Source: an uncultured Pelagibacteraceae bacterium (GTDB lineage: Bacteria > Pseudomonadota > Alphaproteobacteria > Pelagibacterales > Pelagibacteraceae). From it: a stretch of 45,000 bases of DNA. How positions within the stretch are numbered: the first letter of the stretch is position 1; each line of letters starts with the position of its first letter. Where the stretch lies: assembly GCA_902603215.1 (NCBI GenBank), contig CACKTW010000001.1:1-45000 (forward strand), written 5' to 3'. This document shows, piece by piece, positions 30,697-45,000 of the stretch. The notes below the pieces were generated by a model. That model had not been told where the DNA came from and did not search any database. It saw only the letters and a program-made list of their open reading frames with translations. The translations under genes and the position numbers were made by a program.

Positions 30697-31425
30697 CTAT
30701 TGCTTGAATAAATTAATATACATATCAAATTTTTGTTTAGCTAAAAATTTTTTTTTTAATGGCATAAAAGAAAAATAATTTCCAATTTTTTTTTGTTTAA
30801 TTCCAAGATTTTTTTTAAAAAATTTTTTTTTAAATAATGAATAAAACATTTTTGCAGCTAATAAAGTTGTAAAATATCTCAAATGAAAAATTTTCATTTT
30901 TTTTTTAAGTTTTATTTTTTTTTCCATTAAAATCGGTCCTGAATCTAATTGTTCATTAACTTGATGAATGCAGGTTCCAATATTATTGAAATCATCGTTT
31001 ATTATTGCCCACAAATCTGAATCTAATCCACGGTATTTTTTAATTATACCTCTGTGAATATTTAATACATTTAATGAAAAACTATCAATTATTTCCTTTG
31101 AAATTTTTCTGCATCCAAAAACTATGCCTATATCAGGTTTAATTTTTTTTAAAATTTTTAAAGATTTTTTTGAATTAATATTTGTAACATTAATTAATTT
31201 TTTATTATTTAATTTTTTTGAAAACCTGGAAAAAAATTTTTTTAGTTCAAATTTATATTCCTCTTCTTCGTAAAATGGGCCCGTTACAAATTTTGGCTTT
31301 ATACTAGATGTTTCGAAAATATATTTAAAAAAATTTATATTTTTGTCTTCTAGATATTTAATAAAATATCTGTGGTGTAATGTGTCTGTTGATAACAAAA
31401 TAATAACCGGTTTTTTATAAGCCAA
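30697..31425 (-). CDS. Formyltransferase family protein, probable sugar N-formyltransferase
   Basis: This 242-residue protein carries the N10-formyl-tetrahydrofolate transferase core without the C-terminal domain of methionyl-tRNA formyltransferase. The catalytic triad is visible: N122 and H124 in [13 protein letters not shown] and D161 in [19 protein letters not shown] at 149-159 is the usual strand between them. The start is a TTG at 31425 within the end of the neuB-like gene; AGGA about 10 nt upstream supports it and no early ATG exists. By context (between a CE4 deacetylase and a NeuB-like synthase) it likely N-formylates an amino sugar such as a Qui4N- or nonulosonate-type amine. Confidence 0.85.
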
Positions 31426-32101
31426 ATTCTATTTTCCTATGTATTTTTCTTCCAATGTCGACCATGGTTTTAAATTCTTCAGGGGTTGCCGACAAAATAT
31501 GATCTCTTACTACTGTGCTTGATTTATCTAATGTAAAATGTTTTTCAATAACGCTTGCTCCCCTGCTAATTGCGATAAGAGGAGCATCAATACCAATGGA
31601 ATGATCACTATAACCTACACAATGTGAATCTTTAAAATTTTTTGGCAATCCTTTTAAATCTTTTAATTCTGTTGGATATTTTGATTTACACCAAAAATAT
31701 TTGACATTTTTTTTTGATGGAATTGGCAAATCTTTTTTATCCCACATGCCAAGTGAAATAAATGTTGTTTTATCAAGATTTACTATTTCTTTAACTAAAT
31801 TCAAATTATCCACTACTGTTCTTGAAGCTATCTTGTACTTGTCTAAATTTAATTTTTTTACCATTTCTAAAGAATCTTTGTTAAAAATAGAAAACATGAG
31901 TTCTATACCAAATTCATTTGACCATTTTTTTAATGTCTTAATTCTTTTTAAATCTAAATAATTGATTTCATTTGGAGAACCTCTCCACCCAAGTTGAAAT
32001 TTTGCAATATCGGCCCCGCTATCTTTTGCCAATTTAATCATCTCATAACACAAATTGAAATTTCCATTATGATTTAAACCTATTTCAGCAATAAATATCA
32101 T
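31415..32101 (-). CDS. NeuB-family nonulosonate synthase, compact form without SAF domain
   Basis: This 228-residue TIM-barrel protein matches N-acetylneuraminate, legionaminate and pseudaminate synthases, which condense PEP with a six-carbon sugar. Visible motifs are [10 protein letters not shown] at 5-14, ADIAKFQ at 30-36, DKYKIASR at 87-94, TFISLGMW at 113-120, [12 protein letters not shown] at 138-149, VGYSDHSIG at 162-170 and [10 protein letters not shown] at 184-193, with [12 protein letters not shown] at 199-210. Family members are usually near 340 residues and end in an SAF (antifreeze-like) domain. Here the protein stops after the barrel and the loop following KFQ is also short. The frame is intact at both ends, and the stop overlaps the formyltransferase start by 11 bp. 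Confidence 0.85.
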
Positions 32102-32115
32102 TACTTAATCCTTTT

Positions 32116-32778
32116 CTAATAACTTTTTAGCAATTTGTCATATCTGCTTAAAATTTTTTTTCTTTTAGTTCTATTGGTAGAATGTTGTCTATATTTATAA
32201 AGTGGAAACTCTAATCTTCCTATATTAAATTTTTTACTGAATCTTTTTTTTAGTTCGTGTCCTTCTCTCATTTTAAAATTTTCATTATATAACCCGATAT
32301 CAAACAAAGCTTCTTTTCTAAACATAATTCCACATGCTATTTCATTTTTAAAGCAATTAACTTTTTCTATAATTTTTTCATTATCAGATACTTTATAGTA
32401 ATCCACTGCCACTGCTTGATATTCTCTATTCATATCTAGAAAAAGTTTTGTAAGATACAAAAACATACGAGAAACATAATCATCAGAATCGACTCTTACA
32501 ATATATCTTCCCACAGATGCTTTGATTGCAGTATTAATTGATTTAGGAAGGCCAATATTTTTTTTGTTTTTTATAATTTTTATTCCACTAAATTCTTTTA
32601 AATTTTTAATAACTTTTTGAGTATTGTCTGTAGAGGCGTCGTCTACCAATATAATTTCAATATCTTTTTTATTTATTATAATTTGATTTTTTAAACTTCT
32701 GATACATCTTTCAATCCATTTATCATGGTTATAGGTACAAATAATTACTGAAATATCTGGAAGAAAATTTTTTTTCAT
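32116..32778 (-). CDS. Glycosyltransferase family 2
   Basis: This 220-residue GT-A protein has [22 protein letters not shown] near residue 8, [13 protein letters not shown] near 42 and [13 protein letters not shown] near 95, which holds the DxD metal motif. [17 protein letters not shown] near 152 and [10 protein letters not shown] near 170 are typical downstream elements, with the acidic catalytic region reduced to EGHE. It overlaps the fused cytidylyltransferase-dehydrogenase gene by 4 bp and precedes neuB by 14 bp. It is a candidate for the transferase that uses the CMP-activated product, although GT2 enzymes using CMP-nonulosonates would be unusual. Confidence 0.87.
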
Positions 32779-34505
32779 TTATTCTTGTCCTTAAAAAAAT
32801 TATTAATTGTAATTAAAGATTGTTGAGCGGCCTTTTCTTCGGATTCATAAGTTAGTCCTGCTATATGTGGAGTGATAAGCAGTCTATCATTTATTTTTGA
32901 AAATTTAATCAATTTATTTTTTTTAATATCTTTTTGTTCATCTTTTACAACGTCAGTAGCTACATAAGATAAAACTTTTGACTTTAAAGCTTTAATTAAC
33001 CCTGTTTCAGAAACTATTTCACCTCTTGAAGTATTTATTAAAATAGATCCTTTTTTAATCTTTTTGAACCAAACATGATTAATCATATTTTTTGTTTTAT
33101 CATTCAAATTAACACAAATAAATAATATATCTGCTTTTGAAATTACATCTGAATATGACCTTTTTTGTGAAATATTTTTATTTTTTATTTTTTTAAATGG
33201 ATCGTACGCTAAAACTTTCATGCCAAATGCAACGGCGTATTTAGCAACGTTAGATCCTATTCTTCCAAATCCAATTATTCCAATCGTTTTTCCATGCAAT
33301 TCATGTCCTCTAAGAATATCTTCTTCATCTCTCCAATGTCCAGATTTAGATATTTCAACAGATTTTGGTATTTTTTTTATTGTTGATAACAATAGCCCGA
33401 ATGTAAATTCTGAAGAAGCATAAATTTTTTTGATAAATTTTGTCTTTAAAAGTGTTTTTACTTTAATGTTTTTTTTTTTACAAAAATCCTTATCTATGTG
33501 ATTGCTGCCTGTTGATGGAGTAACTATAAGTTTAAGATTTTGAGCAAATTTTAAAATATCTTCATTAATTAAATATGTTGGGCATGGACTACAAAACCAG
33601 CAATCAACATATTTTACTAAGGACTTAATTTTATTTTGATCTTGCGTTTTTGTAATTATACAATCATATTTTTTAGTTAGTTGATTTTTTATTTCTTTTA
33701 AAAAATGTAGTGGTGTGGTGATTAATATTTTTTTCTTAAAATTTTTTTTATAAAATAAAACTTTTTTATCTATTTTTTTTGGCACATTTGTACAATAGCC
33801 TTTTTCGATCAATAATTTTGCTGTTAATAGATCAAATTTATTATCTATATTGATTGATTTATTTTCATTCATTATAAATGGTAAGGAATTTTTTCCTTGT
33901 CTACTTTTTTGTTTAATAATGCAATCTCTCCTCATTGCGTAAATAGCACCGTTTCTTATATAACTTGGTTCAAAATCTTGACGCCTAGATCCTTTTTTTG
34001 GTTCTGGATATTCTCTACAAAAATCTTTAACTTTGTTCCCTATGATTTTTTTGAGTCTTATTGGGTGTTTTTCCCCTGTGTTTACATAGCTAATTACAGA
34101 ATCTTTTTTTGATTTTAATAATAGCTCTAGAGCACCATCAATATCCGTTTCATCTCTAAATGGTGATACACATGGCAGTTCAATTACATAATCAAATTTA
34201 GTTTCAAAAAATTTTTCACATTCTATTACTGAATGCCTTAGGGCATCAACGGAAAGTGTTTTATCTTTTGCTAAATTTTTTGGTCTTAAAAAAGGAACTA
34301 ATGCTCCATATTCTTTAGATATTTTTGCAATTTTTTTATCATCCGTTGAAACAATTACATTTTTAATAAATCTAGAATTTAGAGCTGCAGAAATTGTATA
34401 ACTTATTAATGGATGATTATTAATAGGATAAATGTTTTTTCTAGGAATGCTTTTTGAGCCCCCTCTAGCCAAAATAACACATAAAAAATTTTTTTTATTT
34501 TTCAT
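32775..34505 (-). CDS. Fusion of CMP-nonulosonate synthetase (NeuA-like) and D-2-hydroxyacid dehydrogenase
   Basis: This 576-residue protein joins two enzymes. Residues 1-235 form an acylneuraminate cytidylyltransferase: [13 protein letters not shown] at 12-24 (CTP loop), [14 protein letters not shown] at 110-123 and [10 protein letters not shown] at 182-191. Residues 255-576 form a D-isomer-specific 2-hydroxyacid dehydrogenase of the phosphoglycerate dehydrogenase type: [12 protein letters not shown] at 408-419 for NAD, the catalytic R494 (TSRGEIV), E523 (DEQ) and H547 (ITPHIAG). All three catalytic positions are present. A short Lys-rich linker (about 240-258) separates the domains. The frame is continuous with no sign of an assembly join. 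The neighbours are GT2 and NeuB. The dehydrogenase substrate is unknown; it may oxidise or reduce a 2-hydroxy/2-keto acid sugar precursor. Confidence 0.88.
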
Positions 34506-34517
34506 AAATTCATCATT

Positions 34518-36317
34518 TCAATTATAAGTTTTACTAGTGTTTAAAATTATATTTTTTAAATTTTCTATTTTTTTTGAATCGTATTTTGCATATTTTTGAC
34601 AAAATTTTTTTCTAACATGTTGAACATCTTTTTTGTTCCACCATTCGTCTATTTCATTCCAAATTTCATTTAAATGTTCGCTAACGCTTTCCGTTGTTTC
34701 GTGAAAAATCTTACTTTTCTTTAGCTCTTCAAAATATGGTATCGCTTCTTCTCTTAAAGGATTTTTATTGGTTGGGCAAAATATTATAACTGGAATATTG
34801 GCTGCCAATAATTCTAAATAGCCAGTTGCGTTATATGTGTAGACAACAAGCTTTGTTTTTTTCAATATTTCTATTATCGGCTTGTAACCTTTATCAATTG
34901 TAATTTCTGGAAACTCGTCAGACCAAAGTTTTTCTTCACACCAGCCATACTTTCGTTCATGAAGCCTTATAACCAAATTTTCTGATCTAATTTTAAAATT
35001 TAATTTTCTTGCAATTTTTAAACAATTTTGATGATATTCTAATAGTTGATGACCTCTAACTCTTGAATCCAAAGCTGTTGCTGAATATCTTTCTTTGGGT
35101 CTTATTACAAATAATAGTTTTGTTTTTTTTTTAATTTTTTTGATTTTTTCATAAATGTTTATTGGTTTAAGGATTCCAAAAGGAATCAATTTTTTATCTC
35201 TGTTGTCTTCCCATCCCCAGGTAAGATAAAAATCAGATATATCTCTTTCAAATTCCTCATACCAATGAAATAAACATTGCCCATATGCTCCTCCATGTTG
35301 TCCGTGTATTAATTTCGTCCCGTTTTCCTTTTTTTCAGCCGTATATTTTGCTGGAATAGTTTTATTATTAATAAAATGAGATGTAAATATGGTTTCAGGT
35401 TTTTTTGGCCAATTAAGTTTTGAAGTTGCAGTAGAAATCTTTTTATAATTTTCTAAATATGACATTGGTATCAATGTTGGCATTATTTCTCTTAAAAATT
35501 TTTCAAAATTATTTTTTGCTTCAAAATTAAGTTTAATTTTATTTCTCAGTTCTTTATTTGGTTCACACAAAAAAGTTTGATCTGGTGATAAACTCAAAGG
35601 AAATAAACCTAAACTTAAATTCAATTTTATTTCTGAAAATTTCCCTAGATAACTTTCACAAATTAAATATTTTTCATTTTTTCTAATTAATTTTATTAAA
35701 GGATTAAATATATTTGATAAAAAAATTATTATTCTTCTATTTAAGTTTTTTCGATGTAATTTAACTCTAACATAATTATCATTTTTTAAATCATCAATAT
35801 ATTCAATATTAATTGCATTTTTAAATGAAATTGTTTCTATAATTTTTGAAAAAATAAAGTGGTTCCACTTATCTTGGTGAATAATATCTATAAAATTTTC
35901 TATTCCTAAGGGAACCATTTCTGAAACATTTATTTTTAATATTATAGTATTCGAAAGAGTATTTTCTGAAAATGCTTTTTGAATAATTTCCCATCTATCA
36001 AATAAAATTTGAATAAAGCAATTAAGCCAATGTCCAAGATAAATTTTCCAATATCTTTCTGAATATTTTTCATCATGAATTTCATTTAACACTTGCACAA
36101 GATTTTTTATTATCTTTTCGCTAAGATTTTTTAAATAAATATAATCTTCTTGTAATTTTTTGGTATCATCCCAATGATAAGCAAGCGTTTGATGATTTAA
36201 TTCATTCCAAATATTTTTTTCGCTATAAATTTTGCACCAATTACCTAAAAAAAGTAAAGGTTGATCATATTTCCAAGTTTCTTCCATGGCTGTTGTTATA
36301 AGAAATTTTTTTTGCAT
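34518..36317 (-). CDS. LIC12162-family putative transferase (surface carbohydrate)
   Basis: This 599-residue soluble protein matches the LIC12162/TIGR04331 family by its N-terminal signature: FLITTAMEETW, then PLLFLGNWCKIYS and LAYHWDDTKKLQEDYIYL within the first 70 residues, and WKIYLGHWLNCFIQILFDRWE near 110. The family occurs in O-antigen and nonulosonate loci and is annotated as a probable transferase. GQHGGAYGQCLFHWYEEFERD near 350 and NATGYLELLAANIPVIIFC near 520 resemble the donor-binding half of GT-B enzymes such as CDP-glycerol or capsule transferases. I start at ATG 36317, which is 7 bp after the ABC transporter stop; a longer frame would overlap it. No membrane segment is seen. Confidence 0.83.
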   Translation of the reverse strand: MQKKFLITTAMEETWKYDQPLLFLGNWCKIYSEKNIWNELNHQTLAYHWDDTKKLQEDYIYLKNLSEKIIKNLVQVLNEIHDEKYSERYWKIYLGHWLNCFIQILFDRWEIIQKAFSENTLSNTIILKINVSEMVPLGIENFIDIIHQDKWNHFIFSKIIETISFKNAINIEYIDDLKNDNYVRVKLHRKNLNRRIIIFLSNIFNPLIKLIRKNEKYLICESYLGKFSEIKLNLSLGLFPLSLSPDQTFLCEPNKELRNKIKLNFEAKNNFEKFLREIMPTLIPMSYLENYKKISTATSKLNWPKKPETIFTSHFINNKTIPAKYTAEKKENGTKLIHGQHGGAYGQCLFHWYEEFERDISDFYLTWGWEDNRDKKLIPFGILKPINIYEKIKKIKKKTKLLFVIRPKERYSATALDSRVRGHQLLEYHQNCLKIARKLNFKIRSENLVIRLHERKYGWCEEKLWSDEFPEITIDKGYKPIIEILKKTKLVVYTYNATGYLELLAANIPVIIFCPTNKNPLREEAIPYFEELKKSKIFHETTESVSEHLNEIWNEIDEWWNKKDVQHVRKKFCQKYAKYDSKKIENLKNIILNTSKTYN

Positions 36318-36324
36318 AAAAATA

Positions 36325-38046
36325 TCAAGATAAATCCTTATGTAACTGTGAATCTTCCAATTTATAAATTTGATTACAATATTCCAAGGTAGTTTTTCTA
36401 TGTGATACAATTAAAAGAGTCCTATCTTTAGAATATCTTTCAATTTCTTTCATAAGTTTTTTTTCAGTTTCAGAATCTAGTGCGCTTGTTGCTTCATCAA
36501 AAATTATAATTGATGGTTTATTATAAAGTGCCCTTGATATTCCAATTCTTTGTTGTTGACCTCCTGATAATTTTATTCCTTTTTCACCAACTATTGTGTC
36601 TAGGCCTTCTGGTAAGTTTTTTATAAATTCTTCAAGTTGAGTAATTTTGATAATTTCATTTATTTTTTCATTGTCTGCTTCATTTCCAGAAATTCCAAAA
36701 ATAATATTATTTTTAATTGTATCATCAATCATATGAACCGATTGGGGAGCGTAACCAATTAGATTTTGCCAAGATCTTATATTTTTTTCTATACTGACAT
36801 TGTCTATACTGATTTTTCCTTTTTCAGGAACTAGCAACCCAATAAAAATGTCAACGAAAGTGCTTTTGCCTGATCCCGTAGTACCCATAATTCCAATTGT
36901 TTCTCCTTTTTTAATTTCAAAGGATAAATCCTTTAAAACGTAATTATTTTTTTTAGGATATTTAAAATAAAGATTTTTAATCTCTATTTTATCTTTAAAA
37001 ATATTTTCAAAATTTTTGGGTTGATATTTTTTTTCTTTACTATCTCCTAATTCTTGAGCCAAAGTATTGACAACCGGTTTTGAAAAATTAAGAGCTTGAA
37101 GTGATCTCAATATTCTTATAACGGAAGGCAACAATCTATAAGCAGCAACTGAAAATAATCCCAAAGTAGGCACTATAGTTGCAATTTCATAATTTCTTTT
37201 TATTAAAATAAAAGTTAAAAAACAAAGTCCAAAAACTCCTAAAAATTCAAGCCAAAATCTTGGTGAATTATCCAAAATGTCAAAATATTTTTTAACAACT
37301 GAATACTTAAAGTTGTGATTTATATATTGAGATATAAAATTTTCTTCTCTTCCAAGAACTTTGATTATTTTAAAACTATTAATGGCCTGTAAAAGACTTT
37401 TAAAAGAAAGTCCAGATTGATAAAGTCTTTTTTCACCCCATAGCTTTATATACTTTCGAGTAATTCTATTAAATAGCAATGCAATTAAAGTTATTATTGT
37501 TGCAACAATTATCGTGCCAAATGGTTCGACTAGTAATAAAAGCGTACTTATTCCTATTAAGACAAAAATTTCTATAATTAAAAGTATAAAATAATCTATA
37601 TATTTTAAAAATCCTTTTACCTCTACAAAATTTCTTGCCAATAAAGCCGAATTTTTATTTAAATAAGATGCATAAGATAAAAACATATAATTTCTTAAAA
37701 GTCTTTCACATATATTTCTATATAATTTATCAGCAAAACTTTTTTGCCACCAAGTAAAAATAAATAAAAAAATATTTTTAATAAAATAAATAAAAAGAAC
37801 AGATCCTATTCCAAATAAAATTAAGTCTTTTTTTTCAAAATTTGATGATAAAAAATTTGATATTTCGTTAACTGTTTCAAATTTGGTATAGAAATTTCCT
37901 TCCGCAAGGAAAGTAAGTGCTGGAAAAACTAAGGCCACTCCAAGAGTTTCTAGAACAACGCAGATAATCATCAAAAAAAACAATACGATTGCCCTGTTCA
38001 AATATTCTTTTGAAATAATTTTTATAGCTTTTTTTAAAACTTCCAT
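36325..38046 (-). CDS. PglK/MsbA-like ABC transporter, lipid-linked glycan flippase
   Basis: This 573-residue half-transporter has six membrane helices in residues 1-320 and a C-terminal ATPase. Walker A is GTTGSGKST near residue 387, the Q-loop is GYAPQSVHMIDD near 432, the signature is LSGGQQQRIGISRAL near 490, and Walker B is IIIFDEATSALD near 512, followed by the H-loop in IVSHRK. The N-terminal helix VVLETLGVALVFPALTFLAEG is like that of PglK, the flippase of lipid-linked oligosaccharides in Campylobacter, and of MsbA relatives. It probably flips the glycan assembled by the surrounding enzymes. Gaps to its neighbours are 7 and 11 bp. Confidence 0.9.
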   Translation of the reverse strand: MEVLKKAIKIISKEYLNRAIVLFFLMIICVVLETLGVALVFPALTFLAEGNFYTKFETVNEISNFLSSNFEKKDLILFGIGSVLFIYFIKNIFLFIFTWWQKSFADKLYRNICERLLRNYMFLSYASYLNKNSALLARNFVEVKGFLKYIDYFILLIIEIFVLIGISTLLLLVEPFGTIIVATIITLIALLFNRITRKYIKLWGEKRLYQSGLSFKSLLQAINSFKIIKVLGREENFISQYINHNFKYSVVKKYFDILDNSPRFWLEFLGVFGLCFLTFILIKRNYEIATIVPTLGLFSVAAYRLLPSVIRILRSLQALNFSKPVVNTLAQELGDSKEKKYQPKNFENIFKDKIEIKNLYFKYPKKNNYVLKDLSFEIKKGETIGIMGTTGSGKSTFVDIFIGLLVPEKGKISIDNVSIEKNIRSWQNLIGYAPQSVHMIDDTIKNNIIFGISGNEADNEKINEIIKITQLEEFIKNLPEGLDTIVGEKGIKLSGGQQQRIGISRALYNKPSIIIFDEATSALDSETEKKLMKEIERYSKDRTLLIVSHRKTTLEYCNQIYKLEDSQLHKDLS

Positions 38047-38943: not shown

Positions 38944-40083
38944 TTACAAAAAATTAGTCATTTTTTTACCTACCTTGGGATTTAAAATGATCAATAGCCT
39001 CCTTAAAATATTTCTAGGAATAATTAAAAATTTACTCAAAAAATATTTTTTTTGATAATTAAAATTTGTAAAAAAATATAAATAAGCTTTTACTATATCT
39101 TTAAAACTATGCTTGTATTCAAATTTGTAATTGAAAAAATAAAAAATATTATTAAATATAACTTCAATCATTAAGGTTTTTTTTTTATCAAGAACTTTTT
39201 TCCATCTTTTTGTTACTTCTTCTGGGTTATAGAAATTAGTTTTTGGATATTTTTTTAAATCTTTTTCTTGATTTTGGTCTTGTAAATATGCACTTTCACC
39301 AAACCATTCTTTTCCATTAAACGTTTGATTAAGAAGAGTTTCTGAAAAATTAATATTTAACCATTTACTTAATTTTTGCATTTCATATTTTAAATTTTTG
39401 TGTAAATTTTCATTTTTTGCTATATAAATTTTATTGGTTAAGCTAATTCTGTTTTTTACAAATTGGTCAGCTGATTTCCAATTAAGCAAAACATGATCAA
39501 ATTGATTTGAAAAAATTTGATCATTATTATGTTTCTGCATTCTTAAAATACTTCCAGCTATTGAAGCTCTTGGGTCACGCATCATAAAAATAAATTGGGG
39601 ATTAAAAATTTTTTCATATTTTTCTGAATGCCATGAAACGTGCTCTTGATGGACCAATATTTTTTTTATTTGCAAATCTACATCGTAGAGTTTTGCATAT
39701 GAGTAATGAATACCTAAAAATAGATTCTTAAAAATATTTTTTTCTTTTGATAAAATTAACCAATCATATAAATAATTTTCAAATAATTTTTTCTCTTTAG
39801 CATCTTTAATAAAATTTCTTCTTTGTGTTTGATGTCTTGGGTCTAGGAAAAAAAGATCTCCAAAAGCTTTTGCTATATCTTTGCTACAATTTTTTTTCTT
39901 AAATGAAATTTTTTTATTCCTTCTTTTTATTGTTTCTATAGACCTAAAAAAACTAAAAGCAGGCATAATTAAAATTTCTTTGTGGTTATCTAGCAAACTG
40001 TGGGCCCAATCTATTCCGTTATGACCATATGATGTCAGTATACAAATATTTAAATTTTTTAAATTTTCTACAATTCTATCCAT
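38944..40083 (-). CDS. Sulfotransferase family protein with unusual P-loop
   Basis: This 379-residue protein resembles bacterial PAPS-dependent sulfotransferases. The N-terminal PAPS-binding loop is read as ILTSYGHNGIDWAHSLLDNH at about 15-34, where most members have GxRSGTTxLxxLLxxH; the Arg-Ser-Gly-Thr core is replaced by His-Asn-Gly-Ile. The 3'-phosphate motif MMRDPRASIAGS near 168 is well kept. FNGKEWFGESAY near 260 is the usual C-terminal motif of this type. It shares one base with the upstream tviB-like gene. It would sulfate a glycan hydroxyl or amine, but the altered P-loop leaves activity in doubt. Confidence 0.78.
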   Translation of the reverse strand: MDRIVENLKNLNICILTSYGHNGIDWAHSLLDNHKEILIMPAFSFFRSIETIKRRNKKISFKKKNCSKDIAKAFGDLFFLDPRHQTQRRNFIKDAKEKKLFENYLYDWLILSKEKNIFKNLFLGIHYSYAKLYDVDLQIKKILVHQEHVSWHSEKYEKIFNPQFIFMMRDPRASIAGSILRMQKHNNDQIFSNQFDHVLLNWKSADQFVKNRISLTNKIYIAKNENLHKNLKYEMQKLSKWLNINFSETLLNQTFNGKEWFGESAYLQDQNQEKDLKKYPKTNFYNPEEVTKRWKKVLDKKKTLMIEVIFNNIFYFFNYKFEYKHSFKDIVKAYLYFFTNFNYQKKYFLSKFLIIPRNILRRLLIILNPKVGKKMTNFL

Positions 40084-41354
40084 TATAATCTTTCATCAAC
40101 AAATTCTTTTTTGAAAAAGCTTTTTACATCGTAAATAATATGATTGTTTTTACAAAAAATTTTAGGTCCTTTTTGATTTAAATATTTAAATTTATCATGA
40201 GAAACTGCTAAAATTAAAATATTATATTTTTTTTTTGTTTTTAATTTTTTAATAAATTTAAATTTATAATCTTTTTTTAATTCATTAGGATTAATCCAGG
40301 GATCATAAATTTCAATTTTTGCTTTTATAGATTTTAAATTTTTAATTAAATCAAAAACTTTTGAATTTCTTGTATCAGAACAATTTTTTTTAAAAGTACA
40401 TCCAAGTATTAAACATTTTCTATTTTTTAATGGAATATTTTTTAATTTAATTAAATATTTAATTCTTTTAGCTATATACTTGCTTACAGAATTATTAAGA
40501 TTTCTTCCTGTTAAAATTATTTTTGGGTTATATCCAAGCTCCTTTGATTTAAAAGTTAAATAGTATGGATCAACTCCAATGCAATGGCCGCCTACTAAAC
40601 CCGGTTTATACTTTACAAAATTCCACTTGGTTGCAGCGGCATCCAATACTTCTTCTGTATCAAGTTTTAGTCTATTAAAAATAATTGCTAATTCGTTTAT
40701 TAAAGCAATGTTTAAATCTCTCTGGGTATTCTCAATAACTTTTGCTGCTTCTGCAATTTTAATATTAGAAGCTAAATAGGTTCCAGCCTTAATAATTGAT
40801 TTATACAAATTATCAACTTGTCTACCAATTTTAATTGTTGAGCCACTAGTTATCTTCTTCAAATTAGTTAAGGAATAACGTTTATCTCCAACATTTATTC
40901 TCTCTGGTGAATATCCACAAAAAAAATCTTCATTATATTTTAGGTTTGATTGTTTTTCTAAAATAGGAACGCAAACCTCTTCAGTACAACCAGGAAAAAC
41001 TGTAGATTCATAAATAACAATTGATTTTTTTTTTAAAAATTTTCCAACTAATTTGGTAGCATTTATTATGTTTGATAAATCTGGCTTATTCTTCTTATTT
41101 ATTGGGGTTGGCACCGTTATTATAAAGTAAGTTGAATTATTTAAATCTTGGAAGTTATTAGAAAATTTTAAATATTTTGCTTTAGAAAAATCTTGTCTGG
41201 TTGTTTGAAAATTTACATCTTTGAATTTCTTTAGTTCATCAATTCTTGATTTTGAGGAATCAAAACCAATAACTTTGAATTTTTTTCCAAATTCCAAAGA
41301 TAATGGTAAACCAACATATCCAAGTCCGATTATTGAAATTTTATTTTTTAACAT
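40083..41354 (-). CDS. tviB: UDP-HexNAc 6-dehydrogenase (TviB/WbpA/WbpO group)
   Basis: This 423-residue nucleotide sugar dehydrogenase oxidises a UDP-sugar C6 twice to the uronic acid with NAD. The N-terminal domain starts [31 protein letters not shown] at 81-93 and [14 protein letters not shown] at 113-126 are typical, and C258 in [13 protein letters not shown] is the catalytic cysteine. The [10 protein letters not shown] and DPYYLTFK motifs favour the Vi-antigen TviB/WbpO group, which acts on UDP-GlcNAc or UDP-GalNAc, over UDP-glucose dehydrogenase. It overlaps the epimerase gene by 14 bp. The symbol is by family similarity; substrate is not certain. Confidence 0.88.
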
Positions 41355-42363
41355 TTTTTTTTATTTTATAATATTCTAAATACCAATTAATAAATTCTTG
41401 AATTCCTTTTTTAATAGAAGTTTTAGATTTATATTTAAGTAATTTTTTTATTTTTCTAGTATCTGAAAAAGTCTTTGGAACATCTCCTTGTTGCAGAGGT
41501 AAAAATTTTTTAATTGCTTTTTTTTTTAGGTTTTCTTCAATAGTGTCTATATATTTCATTAAGTTAACGGGCTTACTATTTCCAATATTCAAAATTCTAA
41601 AAGGCGCAGTGCTTTCTCCTGGGTTTAATTTTGATTTTTTTGCTTTTTTTTTTATTATGTTATCGCTTGCCTTTATTACTCCATTCACTATGTCATCAAT
41701 ATAAGTAAAATCTCTTACATGTTTTCCTTTATTAAAAATTTCTATAGGTTTTCCAGATATAATATTTTTTGTAAAAATAAATAATGACATATCGGGTCTT
41801 CCCCAGGGACCATAAACAGTAAAAAATCTTAAACCAGTTGTTGGTAAATTAAATAAATAACTATAGCTATGAGCCATGATTTCATTTGCTCTTTTTGTGG
41901 CTGCATAAAATTGAATTGGATGATCTACATTATCACTTTCTGAAAATGGATGTTTGGAATTAAGTCCGTAAACACTGCTTGTGCTTGCGTAGGTAAGATG
42001 TTTTATATTTTTTTTTTTACAAAGAAAAAGTATATTTGTAAATCCGATTAAATTACTTTCAACGTATGCTTCAGGATTCTTTAAAGAATATCTAACGCCA
42101 GCTTGGGCGGCAAGATGGACAACTCTTTCAAATTTATGTTTGTTAAAACATGATTCTAATTTTTTTTTATTTGCAATATTAAATTTAATAAAAATAAATT
42201 TTGTTTTATATTTTCTAAGTAATTTTAGTCTACTTTTTTTAAGATTTTGATCATAATAATTATTTATACTATCTATACCGATTACTTGATCCCCTCTATC
42301 TAAAAACTTTTTAGCAGTATGGAATCCTATAAATCCAGCAACACCGGTAACCAAAATTTTCAT
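41341..42363 (-). CDS. UDP-glucuronate 4-epimerase-type SDR (Cap1J/LspL group)
   Basis: This 340-residue extended SDR has [15 protein letters not shown] at 6-20, [16 protein letters not shown] at 31-46 and [22 protein letters not shown] at 84-105. These motifs are characteristic of UDP-glucuronate and UDP-GlcNAc-uronate 4-epimerases. The catalytic residues are Y153 and K157 in FYAATK with TSSVYG at 128-133. [21 protein letters not shown] near 178 completes the family signature. It likely interconverts UDP-GlcA/UDP-GalA or the N-acetyl versions made by the dehydrogenase with which it overlaps. The MarR-type regulator gene lies 21 bp upstream. Confidence 0.88.
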
Positions 42364-42804: not shown

Positions 42805-44100
42805 ATGAAAAAAAAAATTGCATACGTGGCTTTATCAGCAGATATTTTGCATGAAGGCCACATTAATATACTTAAAACAGCAAGTAAGCTAGGCAATGTT
42901 GTGGTTGGTCTGCTAACAGATGAAGCTATATCTACATACAAAAAAATTCCATATTTAGATTTCAAACAAAGAAAAACTGTTATTCAAAATATTAAATATG
43001 TAACTAAAGTAATACCTCAAAAAACTTTGGATTATGTTCCTAATCTTAAATATATAAAGCCAGATTTTGTTGTTCATGGAGATGATTGGAAAACCGGGAT
43101 TCAAAAAAAAACCAGAGGAAAGGTAATTAAGATACTAAAAAAATGGTCAGGAAAACTAGTAGAACCCAAATATACAAAAAATATTTCATCTTCAAAAATA
43201 AAAGAAAAAATATATGAGGCTGGAATCTCTCCTGAAAATAGAGTTTCTAGATTAAAAAGATTAATAAATGTAAAAAAAATAGTTAGAATATTAGAATCTC
43301 ATAATTCACTTACTGGTCTAATTATTGAAAATTTAAAGATTAATAAAAAAAAAGAATATTTAGAATTTGATGGAATGTGGTCCTCAAGTTTAACGGATTC
43401 CTTAACAAGAGGAAAACCAGATAATCAAGCGGTAGATTATTCAACGCGAATTTCTGGTTTAAATGAAATTCTAGATGTTACTACTAAGCCATTAATTTTT
43501 GATGCAGACAATGGTGGAAGGCTTGAGCATATTTCATATTTAGTTAAAACTTTAGAAAGGGCTGGAGTGTCAGCAGTAGTCTTCGAAGACAAAATTGGAC
43601 TAAAAAAAAATTCCTTATTTGAAGACCAAAAAAAAACTAAACAAGATCTTATTAAAAATTTTTGTAAAAAAATAACTAAAGCTAAAAATGCTAAAATCTC
43701 TGATGATTTAATGATAGTTGCAAGAATAGAGTCTTTTATTTTAGGAAAAGGATTAAGTGACGCAATTAAAAGAGCGGAAGCTTATTCAAAAGCTGGAGCA
43801 GATGCAATTTTAATTCATAGCAAGGAAAAAAATCCAAAAGAAATTTTTTCATTTTCAAAAAAATTTAATAAAAGTAAATTTAAAAAACCATTAATTGCGG
43901 TTCCTTCTACATATTCTAAAACATCCGAAACAATGTTAATAAAAAATGGTTTTAAAATTGTAATTTATGCAAATCATTTACTAAGAGCCTCTTATCCTGC
44001 AATGCAGGATGTTGCTAAAAAAATACTTTTAAGTAAAAGATCATTTGAAGTAGAAAAAAAAATAAGCCCTATTAAGGAAATTATAAGTTTAATAAAATAA
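42805..44100 (+). CDS. aepX: Cytidylyltransferase-phosphoenolpyruvate mutase fusion
   Basis: This 431-residue enzyme starts the phosphonate pathway. Residues 1-135 are a nucleotidyltransferase of the glycerol-3-phosphate/cholinephosphate cytidylyltransferase type, with HEGH at 16-19 and ISSSKI at 127-132. Residues 150-431 are phosphoenolpyruvate mutase, which makes the C-P bond of phosphonopyruvate. Evidence is EFDGMWSSSLTDS at 187-199, FDADNGG at 232-238 and the gating-loop signature EDKIGLKKNS at 261-270; the EDK-NS motif separates mutases from isocitrate-lyase-like hydrolases. The fused N-terminal domain is known in this family and may form CMP-activated phosphonate. The decarboxylase gene follows after 5 bp. 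Confidence 0.93.
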   Translation: MKKKIAYVALSADILHEGHINILKTASKLGNVVVGLLTDEAISTYKKIPYLDFKQRKTVIQNIKYVTKVIPQKTLDYVPNLKYIKPDFVVHGDDWKTGIQKKTRGKVIKILKKWSGKLVEPKYTKNISSSKIKEKIYEAGISPENRVSRLKRLINVKKIVRILESHNSLTGLIIENLKINKKKEYLEFDGMWSSSLTDSLTRGKPDNQAVDYSTRISGLNEILDVTTKPLIFDADNGGRLEHISYLVKTLERAGVSAVVFEDKIGLKKNSLFEDQKKTKQDLIKNFCKKITKAKNAKISDDLMIVARIESFILGKGLSDAIKRAEAYSKAGADAILIHSKEKNPKEIFSFSKKFNKSKFKKPLIAVPSTYSKTSETMLIKNGFKIVIYANHLLRASYPAMQDVAKKILLSKRSFEVEKKISPIKEIISLIK

Positions 44101-44105
44101 ATCTG

Positions 44106-45000
44106 ATGATATCTCCAAAAATATTTTTATCATTTTTAAAAAAAAAAGGATTTAATTTTTTTTCAGGTGTTCCTGATAGTGTTTTAAAAAATTTTACTAA
44201 TTTATTAGATCATGATAATAAAATTAATCATATTGTTTCAACAAATGAAGGTTCGGCTATTTCTCTAGGTATAGGTTATCATTTAGCTACCAAAAAAGTT
44301 CCGTGCATTTATATGCAAAACTCAGGATTGGGTAATGCTTTTAATCCTCTAACATCAATTGCGCATAAAAAAGTTTATTCAATACCTCTTCTGCTTATAA
44401 TTGGTTGGAGAGGATCTCCAAAATCTAAGGACGAGCCACAACATAATGTTATGGGAAAAATTACTCAAAAAACTTTAAAGCTTATGAATATTAAATCAGC
44501 AGTTATAAATGGAAGAAGTAATTTTAAAAAATTAGAAAGGCAAATTTCTAATTTAAAATCAAATAAAAAAACTTTTGCGATATTGATTAAACCAAATTCC
44601 TTTAATAAATATAATTTGAAAAAGAAAAAAACTAAAAAAAATATATTTAAAAGGGCTGAATTTCTTGAATATTTTTTAACTAAAATCCCTCAAAAATCAA
44701 AAATAATATCTACAACTGGATATTCATCAAGAGAAGTTTTTCAAATAAAAAAAGAAAAAAAAATAAATAAAGGAAAAAATTTTTATATGGTTGGTGGCAT
44801 GGGGCATGCCTCAATGGTAAGTCTTGGATATTCAATTAATCGAAAAGAGCAAACAATATGTATTGATGGGGATGGATCTTTACTAATGCATCTTGGTTCG
44901 ATAAGAACAGCAGGATTTCTTGGAAATAAAAATTTTAAACATGTTTTGCTGAATAATAATTCTCATGAATCTGTAGGTGGACAAAGTACAAACGCCAAAG
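44106..45000 (+). CDS. aepY: Phosphonopyruvate decarboxylase, partial (C-terminus beyond right edge)
   Basis: The first 298 codons of a ThDP enzyme are present, starting with ATG at 44106. VPDSVLKNF near residue 22 and NEGSAISLGIGYH near 46-58 (with the catalytic Glu) are the ThDP pyrimidine-domain motifs. MQNSGLGNAFNPL near 68-80 and SKDEPQHNVMG near 109-119 are specific to phosphonopyruvate decarboxylase, and IDGDGSLLMHLGS near 256 is the ThDP-pyrophosphate motif. It removes CO2 from phosphonopyruvate to give phosphonoacetaldehyde and so makes the unfavourable mutase reaction irreversible. An aminotransferase for 2-aminoethylphosphonate should follow beyond the window. About 80 residues are probably missing. 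Confidence 0.93.
   Translation, partial: MISPKIFLSFLKKKGFNFFSGVPDSVLKNFTNLLDHDNKINHIVSTNEGSAISLGIGYHLATKKVPCIYMQNSGLGNAFNPLTSIAHKKVYSIPLLLIIGWRGSPKSKDEPQHNVMGKITQKTLKLMNIKSAVINGRSNFKKLERQISNLKSNKKTFAILIKPNSFNKYNLKKKKTKKNIFKRAEFLEYFLTKIPQKSKIISTTGYSSREVFQIKKEKKINKGKNFYMVGGMGHASMVSLGYSINRKEQTICIDGDGSLLMHLGSIRTAGFLGNKNFKHVLLNNNSHESVGGQSTNAK

What the first reader, a model, noticed from the sequence alone, without database searches (positions are those of the whole stretch)
32775..34505. CMP-nonulosonate synthetase fused to a D-2-hydroxyacid dehydrogenase
One uninterrupted frame holds a complete NeuA-type domain and a complete dehydrogenase with all catalytic residues (R494, E523, H547). NulO pathways do not normally include a 2-hydroxyacid dehydrogenase. 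The fusion suggests that oxidation or reduction at the alpha carbon is coupled to CMP activation, perhaps giving a modified ulosonic acid. An alternative is a phosphonate branch: as I recall, phosphinothricin clusters pair a PGDH-like enzyme with a cytidylyltransferase, and PEP mutase lies only 8 kb away.
Basis: partly seen in the sequence, partly recalled or inferred. Interest (0 to 1): 0.78.

Follow-up and report, generated by a model that had tools for sequence, protein, structure and literature searches.

The report
Sugar-activating enzyme fused to hydroxyacid dehydrogenase
In an ocean bacterium of the SAR11 group, one protein joins an enzyme that loads an acidic sugar onto CMP with an enzyme that oxidises or reduces hydroxy acids; the same two enzymes, separate or fused, sit together in many bacteria, in archaea and in phage contigs, which points to an uncharacterised step in making acidic surface sugars.

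Summary
The fusion is real: one 576-aa minus-strand frame, a NeuA/PseF-type cytidylyltransferase followed by a D-2-hydroxyacid dehydrogenase (DH). The same single-frame fusion occurs in four other Pelagibacteraceae genomes and in Magnetococcales; an unrelated one occurs in Omnitrophota. It is part of a cassette with a small family-2 glycosyltransferase and a NeuB-like synthase lacking the SAF domain. IMG/VR viral contigs carry the same cassette, with NeuA and DH as adjacent genes. In other bacteria, a related DH sits in NeuB-NeuC-NeuA operons. Searching with the DH alone gave the same answer: 32 of 37 viral loci have NeuA directly beside it. Of 24 high-scoring cellular loci, 10 are fused, 10 have NeuA near, and 4 have NeuB beside it. 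SerA-type dehydrogenases score below a clear gap and lack NeuA. NeuA linked to this DH usually carries Asn where characterised CMP-sialate synthetases have a catalytic Asp. In two Thaumarchaeota genomes NeuA is instead fused to a LarA hydroxyacid racemase. Best reading: alpha-carbon chemistry on an acidic sugar coupled to CMP activation; substrate and direction are unknown. The phosphonate alternative found no support. The papers searched hold no description beyond one passing remark on Leptospira santarosai.

The parts
32775..34505 (-). NeuA/PseF-type cytidylyltransferase fused to D-2-hydroxyacid dehydrogenase, 576 aa
   Evidence: AF2 mean pLDDT 91.2, pTM 0.61
33786..34505 (-). cytidylyltransferase domain, residues 1-240 (R14, S17, K18, K23, N24, R74, R175, Q176, D221 conserved; Asn219 at the position of catalytic Asp213/Asp209)
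33735..33785 (-). interdomain linker, residues 241-257; the border motif G236-x-C238-x-N240-x-P242 is invariant in seven fusions; residues 250-255 have pLDDT < 50
32778..33734 (-). D-2-hydroxyacid dehydrogenase domain, residues 258-576: GFGRIG Rossmann motif, D435 (NAD type, inferred), catalytic R494, E523, H547
32116..32778 (-). small family-2 glycosyltransferase, 220 aa, overlaps the fusion by 4 bp; conserved cassette member
31415..32101 (-). short NeuB-like synthase, 228 aa, complete TIM barrel with catalytic residues but no C-terminal SAF domain
34518..36410 (-). 630-aa protein without Pfam match; relatives precede the fusion in L144 and L231 and occur in L142 and L143
36325..38046 (-). 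ABC transporter, syntenic in Pelagibacteraceae capsule loci
40083..41354 (-). UDP-glucose dehydrogenase-type gene, syntenic neighbour
41341..42363 (-). UDP-glucuronate epimerase-type gene, syntenic neighbour

Best explanation
This is a bifunctional enzyme of a four-function cassette (SAF-less NeuB-like synthase, NeuA-type cytidylyltransferase, dedicated NAD-type D-2-hydroxyacid dehydrogenase, small GT2) that most likely makes and transfers a CMP-activated acidic sugar onto a surface glycan of a SAR11 cell, with a relative of the cassette carried on viral contigs. SHOWN by sequence: domain make-up, catalytic residues, conserved linkage, single-clade origin of the window's fusion, recurrent coupling of NeuA to alpha-hydroxyacid enzymes. 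INFERRED: the synthase joins PEP to an aldehyde other than ManNAc (no SAF domain, no NeuC/WecB-type epimerase found in the genome); the dehydrogenase interconverts the 2-hydroxy and 2-keto forms of the sugar acid at C2, and the cytidylyltransferase domain captures the 2-keto (anomeric) form from CTP; fusion keeps the two steps together. Direction of redox, the sugar itself and channelling are not shown. The identity part is about 0.9 likely, the C2-redox mechanism about 0.45.
For: Independent fusions: window, four Pelagibacteraceae contigs and two Magnetococcales, nine further genomes of the phylum, and an unrelated one in Omnitrophota L155 outside the clade. DH family: NeuA-linked DHs form a 63-row clade (SH-aLRT 98) apart from SerA-type; the seven fusions one clade (98); the NeuA tree agrees. 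DH-only searches: NeuA directly beside the DH in 32/37 viral loci; in cells, 24 loci at 264-414 bits are fused (10), near NeuA (10) or beside NeuB (4), while the next level (<=227 bits) is SerA-type with none. Cassette order is conserved in viral contigs and Pelagibacteraceae. NeuA active-site signature N219+R184: 51/66 DH-linked against 9/91 others. LarA hydroxyacid racemase fused to NeuA in two Thaumarchaeota MAGs. No NeuC/WecB-type epimerase in own genome; SAF-less NeuB folds as a complete barrel.
Against: A NeuB product already carries a 2-keto group, so it is unclear why C2 redox would be needed; reduction would give an acid that cannot be CMP-activated at an anomeric centre. The N219/R184 signature follows the tree, and the tree-aware sign test is not significant. 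No substrate evidence exists. The own genome is only 70% complete, so NeuC may be missing by chance. The AF2 domain orientation is uncertain (pTM 0.61), so channelling is unsupported.
Confidence: 0.5

Rival explanations
1. The dehydrogenase makes a small D-2-hydroxy acid (D-lactate, D-glycerate, D-malate) that decorates the sugar as an acyl or ether group; it is fused to NeuA only because both serve one pathway.
For: LarA (malate/lactate racemase-like) and D-2-hydroxyacid DH can both yield D-hydroxyacids; closest solved relatives are PGDH, glyoxylate reductase and D-lactate DH; hydroxyacyl substituents on NulOs are known (own knowledge).
Against: In known NulO pathways N-acyl groups are set on the NDP-sugar, before NeuB (own knowledge), whereas the fusion and overlaps are with NeuA; no acyl-CoA ligase or acyltransferase was seen as a fixed cassette member; NeuA active-site residues differ in DH-linked NeuAs, which a mere supplier enzyme would not require.
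Confidence: 0.2
2. The DH half is an ordinary phosphoglycerate or glyoxylate dehydrogenase captured by a chance fusion, without a pathway link.
For: Highest-scoring NCBIfam model is PGDH (169.5 bits).
Against: PGDH score is far below its cut-off (169.5 against 454); separate clade from SerA-type enzymes; bimodal DH-only search with NeuA or NeuB beside every high scorer; fusion arose at least twice.
Confidence: 0.07
3. Phosphonate branch: the pair works like PhpE/PhpF of phosphinothricin synthesis, using phosphonate acids from the nearby PEP mutase.
For: PEP mutase with its own cytidylyltransferase-like domain at 42805-44100, followed by a TPP enzyme.
Against: PEP mutase is on the other strand, several genes away; none found beside other cassettes; NeuB-like genes accompany the pair in nearly all loci.
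Confidence: 0.04
4. The DH fold uses bound NAD for another reaction on the sugar acid or its CMP form, such as epimerisation or an oxidation-assisted elimination, with no net redox change.
For: NeuC-dependent operons also carry the DH, where the usual product needs no C2 redox; LarA works through a transient 2-keto intermediate (family knowledge); SAH hydrolase, of related fold, uses NAD this way (own knowledge).
Against: Canonical R/E/H triad and NAD motif are kept, as in true dehydrogenases.
Confidence: 0.17

Closest known systems
CMP-NulO synthetases NeuA/PseF (PF02348; V. cholerae CMAS 6ifd, N. meningitidis 1eyr)
   Same: Same fold, ARGGSK motif, R74, RRQ motif, second metal Asp (D221)
   Different: First metal/catalytic Asp is Asn219; Arg184 added; below the PseF equivalog cut-off (145 against 205.7 bits); fused to a DH
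D-2-hydroxyacid dehydrogenases (PGDH 1wwk, glyoxylate reductase 2dbq, D-lactate DH 5z20)
   Same: Same fold, catalytic Arg/Glu/His, GxGRxG and Asp for NAD
   Different: Separate clade tied to NeuA; 'NEQ/DEQ'-type motif in place of the usual 'EP' at the catalytic Glu in the window clade; below all NCBIfam equivalog cut-offs shown
NeuB/PseI/SpsE synthases (6ncs, 8h2c, 1xuu, 1vli)
   Same: The neighbour at 31415-32101 has the TIM barrel and PEP/metal residues
   Different: No SAF domain, 228 aa
PhpE/PhpF of phosphinothricin synthesis
   Same: PGDH-like enzyme paired with a cytidylyltransferase (recalled, not tested)
   Different: NeuB and GT2 partners here; cytidylyltransferase fold differs as far as recalled
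NeuB 'with a phosphoglycerate dehydrogenase domain' in Leptospira santarosai (one sentence in PMC4758666)
   Same: Mentions a sialic-acid gene product carrying a PGDH domain
   Different: No sequence, function or cassette described; called a synthetase

Membership tests
CMP-NulO synthetase (NeuA/PseF) | PF02348 above cut-off and nucleotide-binding ARGGSK...KN motif | tested here: met
   (80 bits, cut-off 22.6)
CMP-NulO synthetase (NeuA/PseF) | two metal-binding aspartates (Asp209/Asp211 in N. meningitidis) | tested here: not met
   Asn219/Asp221 in the window by alignment to 6ifd; D209A abolishes activity in N. meningitidis (PMC2901514)
CMP-NulO synthetase (NeuA/PseF) | PseF equivalog score (TIGR03584) | tested here: not met
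   145.3 bits, cut-off 205.7
CMP-NulO synthetase (NeuA/PseF) | CTP-dependent activation of a nonulosonic acid | not testable with these tools
   needs assay
D-2-hydroxyacid dehydrogenase superfamily | PF02826 and PF00389 above cut-off; catalytic Arg-Glu-His; NAD motif | tested here: met
Phosphoglycerate dehydrogenase (SerA) | TIGR01327 cut-off; same clade as SerA-type enzymes | tested here: not met
   169.5 against 454 bits; separate clade; score gap
NeuB synthase (neighbour) | PF03102 barrel | tested here: met
NeuB synthase (neighbour) | C-terminal SAF domain | tested here: not met
   228 aa; absent in alignment
PhpE/PhpF-like phosphonate pair | regular neighbourhood of PEP mutase | tested here: not met

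The most novel reading that the evidence does not exclude
A widespread, undescribed step of ulosonic-acid activation: NeuA-type enzymes with a changed metal site work with a dedicated alpha-hydroxyacid enzyme (D-2-hydroxyacid DH, or LarA in Thaumarchaeota) to make a CMP-activated acidic sugar that is not a standard NulO or Kdo, used by bacteria, archaea and viruses.
Probability: 0.35. Interest if true: 0.82.

Novelty: new variant of a known kind. Interest (0 to 1): 0.62.

Why it matters
NulO-type sugars shape phage attachment and cell-surface recognition. A conserved dehydrogenase tied to NeuA across many phyla and viral contigs means that current NulO pathway maps lack a step, and that genes annotated as 'phosphoglycerate dehydrogenase' beside NeuA are probably misnamed. 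The fused protein gives a single, expressible target for finding the missing sugar.

Tried and rejected
Single-protein scans with P0001 found nothing in genome or viral collections; a profile of the NeuA part was needed. A mixed NeuA alignment was too divergent for the genome scan. Phage and plasmid record searches gave no place covering most of the protein; one plasmid record, Gemmobacter fulvus NZ_CP076366, has the two genes side by side. Phosphonate link rejected (no PEP mutase beside other cassettes). Join error rejected (recurrent fusion). Ordinary SerA rejected (tree, score gap). Literature searches found no functional description of the pair. The first DH tree was drawn from loci found through NeuA, so its purity is biased by sampling; the DH-only searches were run to remove that bias. 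The tree-aware test of the active-site signature is not significant, so it is reported as a clade feature only.

Full report
CHECK OF THE OBSERVATION. The frame 32775-34505 is open on the minus strand, 576 aa from ATG. Residues 9-194 match CTP_transf_3 and 271-549 match the two D-2-hydroxyacid dehydrogenase domains, all above Pfam cut-offs. AlphaFold2 gives two confident domains (pLDDT 91.2) with a weak linker and uncertain mutual orientation (pTM 0.61); Foldseek's best PDB hits are glyoxylate reductase, D-lactate DH and PGDH.

THE GENOME. The window lies in an 805-kb, 50-contig, 70% complete genome. Genome G391, placed in the same family, carries over the fusion the same sequence as L145, a Pelagibacteraceae contig (AG-422-G03), so the host is SAR11-like. 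The surroundings are a polysaccharide locus: UDP-sugar genes, ABC transporter, glycosyltransferases. The gene order UGE/UGD, ABC, 34518-type protein, fusion, GT2, short NeuB recurs in part in L142, L143, L144 and L231.

THE FUSION IS REAL AND SHARED. A NeuA-part profile (A3) found single-frame fusions in four Pelagibacteraceae contigs (571-575 aa), two Magnetococcales MAGs (626, 629 aa) and an Omnitrophota MAG (594 aa). In 397 genomes of the window's family three have the fusion (own, G391, G208), while G172 and G092 have the same two genes side by side. Nine more fusions turned up in 398 genomes of the phylum, in two families; one of these loci has the ORF geometry of Magnetococcales L141. 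Trees put window, Pelagibacteraceae and Magnetococcales fusions in one supported clade for both halves; the Omnitrophota fusion has a different DH and arose separately. A linker-border motif G-x-C-x-N-x-P is invariant in the seven fusions.

THE CASSETTE. In IMG/VR contigs (up to 548 kb) the unfused pair lies with a short NeuB and a small GT2 close to those of the window, in the orders NeuB-NeuA-DH-GT2 or NeuA-DH-NeuB-GT2. Some contigs are near-copies of one another, so counts are not independent, and IMG/VR assignment of a contig to a virus was not re-tested here. In a third form NeuA is followed by an enolase-superfamily protein nearest to sugar-acid dehydratases, then a more distant DH. In other bacteria the DH usually follows NeuA in NeuB-NeuC-NeuA-DH operons, often with an asparagine-synthase-like amidotransferase next, in Chloroflexota, Thermodesulfobacteriota, Acidobacteriota, Bacteroidota and Patescibacteria; L165 is a Lokiarchaeota case, with NeuA divergent beside the DH and NeuB.

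IS THE LINK MORE THAN CHANCE? The first DH tree used loci found through NeuA, so a NeuA-only clade was expected. The DH was therefore searched alone. Viral contigs: 37 loci, NeuA directly beside the DH in 32; a NeuB-cytidylyltransferase fusion takes that place in one (L252), one contig is cut (L233), and three weaker DHs have NeuB nearby. Genomes: scores fall into two groups; of 24 loci at 264-414 bits, 10 are fused, 10 have NeuA within about 1.1 kb and 4 have NeuB beside the DH with NeuA not seen in the 1.5-kb flank; the six inspected loci from the next level (<=227 bits) are SerA-like and have none.

WHAT THE NeuA HALF SAYS. Aligned with V. cholerae CMAS (6ifd), the pair Asp213/Asp215 corresponds to Asn219/Asp221. 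D209A (the Asp213 equivalent) abolishes activity in N. meningitidis (PMC2901514). Asn is found in 58 of 72 DH-linked NeuAs against 14 of 98 others, and Arg184 in 66 of 72 against 16 of 98. Together they mark 51/66 against 9/91 non-redundant rows. Of the nine exceptions, one is the LarA fusion (L152), one has the enolase-family gene next (L149) and two are cut contigs (L094, L097). This follows the tree, so it is a clade feature, not independent proof. It suggests a changed acceptor or metal geometry (inference).

LarA IN THE SAME SLOT. In two Thaumarchaeota MAGs (L152, L156) NeuA is fused to a LarA-type nickel hydroxyacid racemase, with NeuB directly upstream. D-2-hydroxyacid DH and LarA are unrelated, but both move a hydride at C2 of a 2-hydroxy acid (family knowledge). 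This is the strongest hint that the NeuA-linked step concerns C2 of an acid.

MECHANISM. Most likely the DH interconverts 2-hydroxy and 2-keto forms of a sugar acid and the cytidylyltransferase captures the keto form as the CMP-sugar, which GT2 transfers. Shown: parts, residues, linkage. Inferred: substrate, direction, channelling. Difficulty: a NeuB product already has the keto group. The SAF-less NeuB (complete barrel) and the lack of a detected NeuC/WecB-type epimerase point to an acceptor other than ManNAc in the window cassette. In G208 an HMGL-like (hydroxy-oxovalerate aldolase-like) gene stands next to the fusion where the short NeuB would be expected, another route to 4-hydroxy-2-oxo acids.

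PHOSPHONATES. The PEP mutase (42805-44100) is on the other strand, with its own nucleotidyltransferase domain and a TPP enzyme next to it; the search set found no PEP mutase beside other cassettes. Not supported.

LITERATURE. No paper in the library described the pair; [quoted passage not shown] The library holds open-licence papers only, so subscription papers may hold more.

VERDICT. Novelty: a new variant of ulosonic-acid activation, function unproved.

Noticed in passing
42805-44999 (+): PEP mutase with an N-terminal nucleotidyltransferase domain, followed by a TPP enzyme that looks like phosphonopyruvate decarboxylase: a probable phosphonate branch separate from this cassette.
   Followed up: partly
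L152 and L156, 9992-11956: NeuA fused to a LarA nickel hydroxyacid racemase in Thaumarchaeota MAGs, with NeuB directly upstream. PMC8397731 reads a LarA of sediment Thaumarchaeota as lactate use; whether it is the same gene was not tested.
   Followed up: partly
L155:5674-7458: Second, unrelated NeuA-dehydrogenase fusion (594 aa) in an Omnitrophota MAG.
   Followed up: yes
L252:4222-5994: 590-aa fusion of NeuB and a cytidylyltransferase beside the cassette dehydrogenase in a viral contig.
   Followed up: partly
L148:10826-12676: Cassette-type dehydrogenase fused to a methyltransferase domain (616 aa) between two NeuA genes in a Parcubacteria MAG.
   Followed up: no
L232:6486-8072: HMGL-like aldolase gene next to the NeuA-DH fusion in G208, where the short NeuB is expected.
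   Followed up: partly
34518-36410 and 38944-40083 (-): Two capsule-locus proteins with no Pfam match above cut-off; both are conserved in the Pelagibacteraceae locus L142.
   Followed up: no
L164, L180, L194, L199: NeuB-NeuC-NeuA-DH operons continue into an asparagine-synthase-like amidotransferase, hinting at amidation of an acid group.
   Followed up: no
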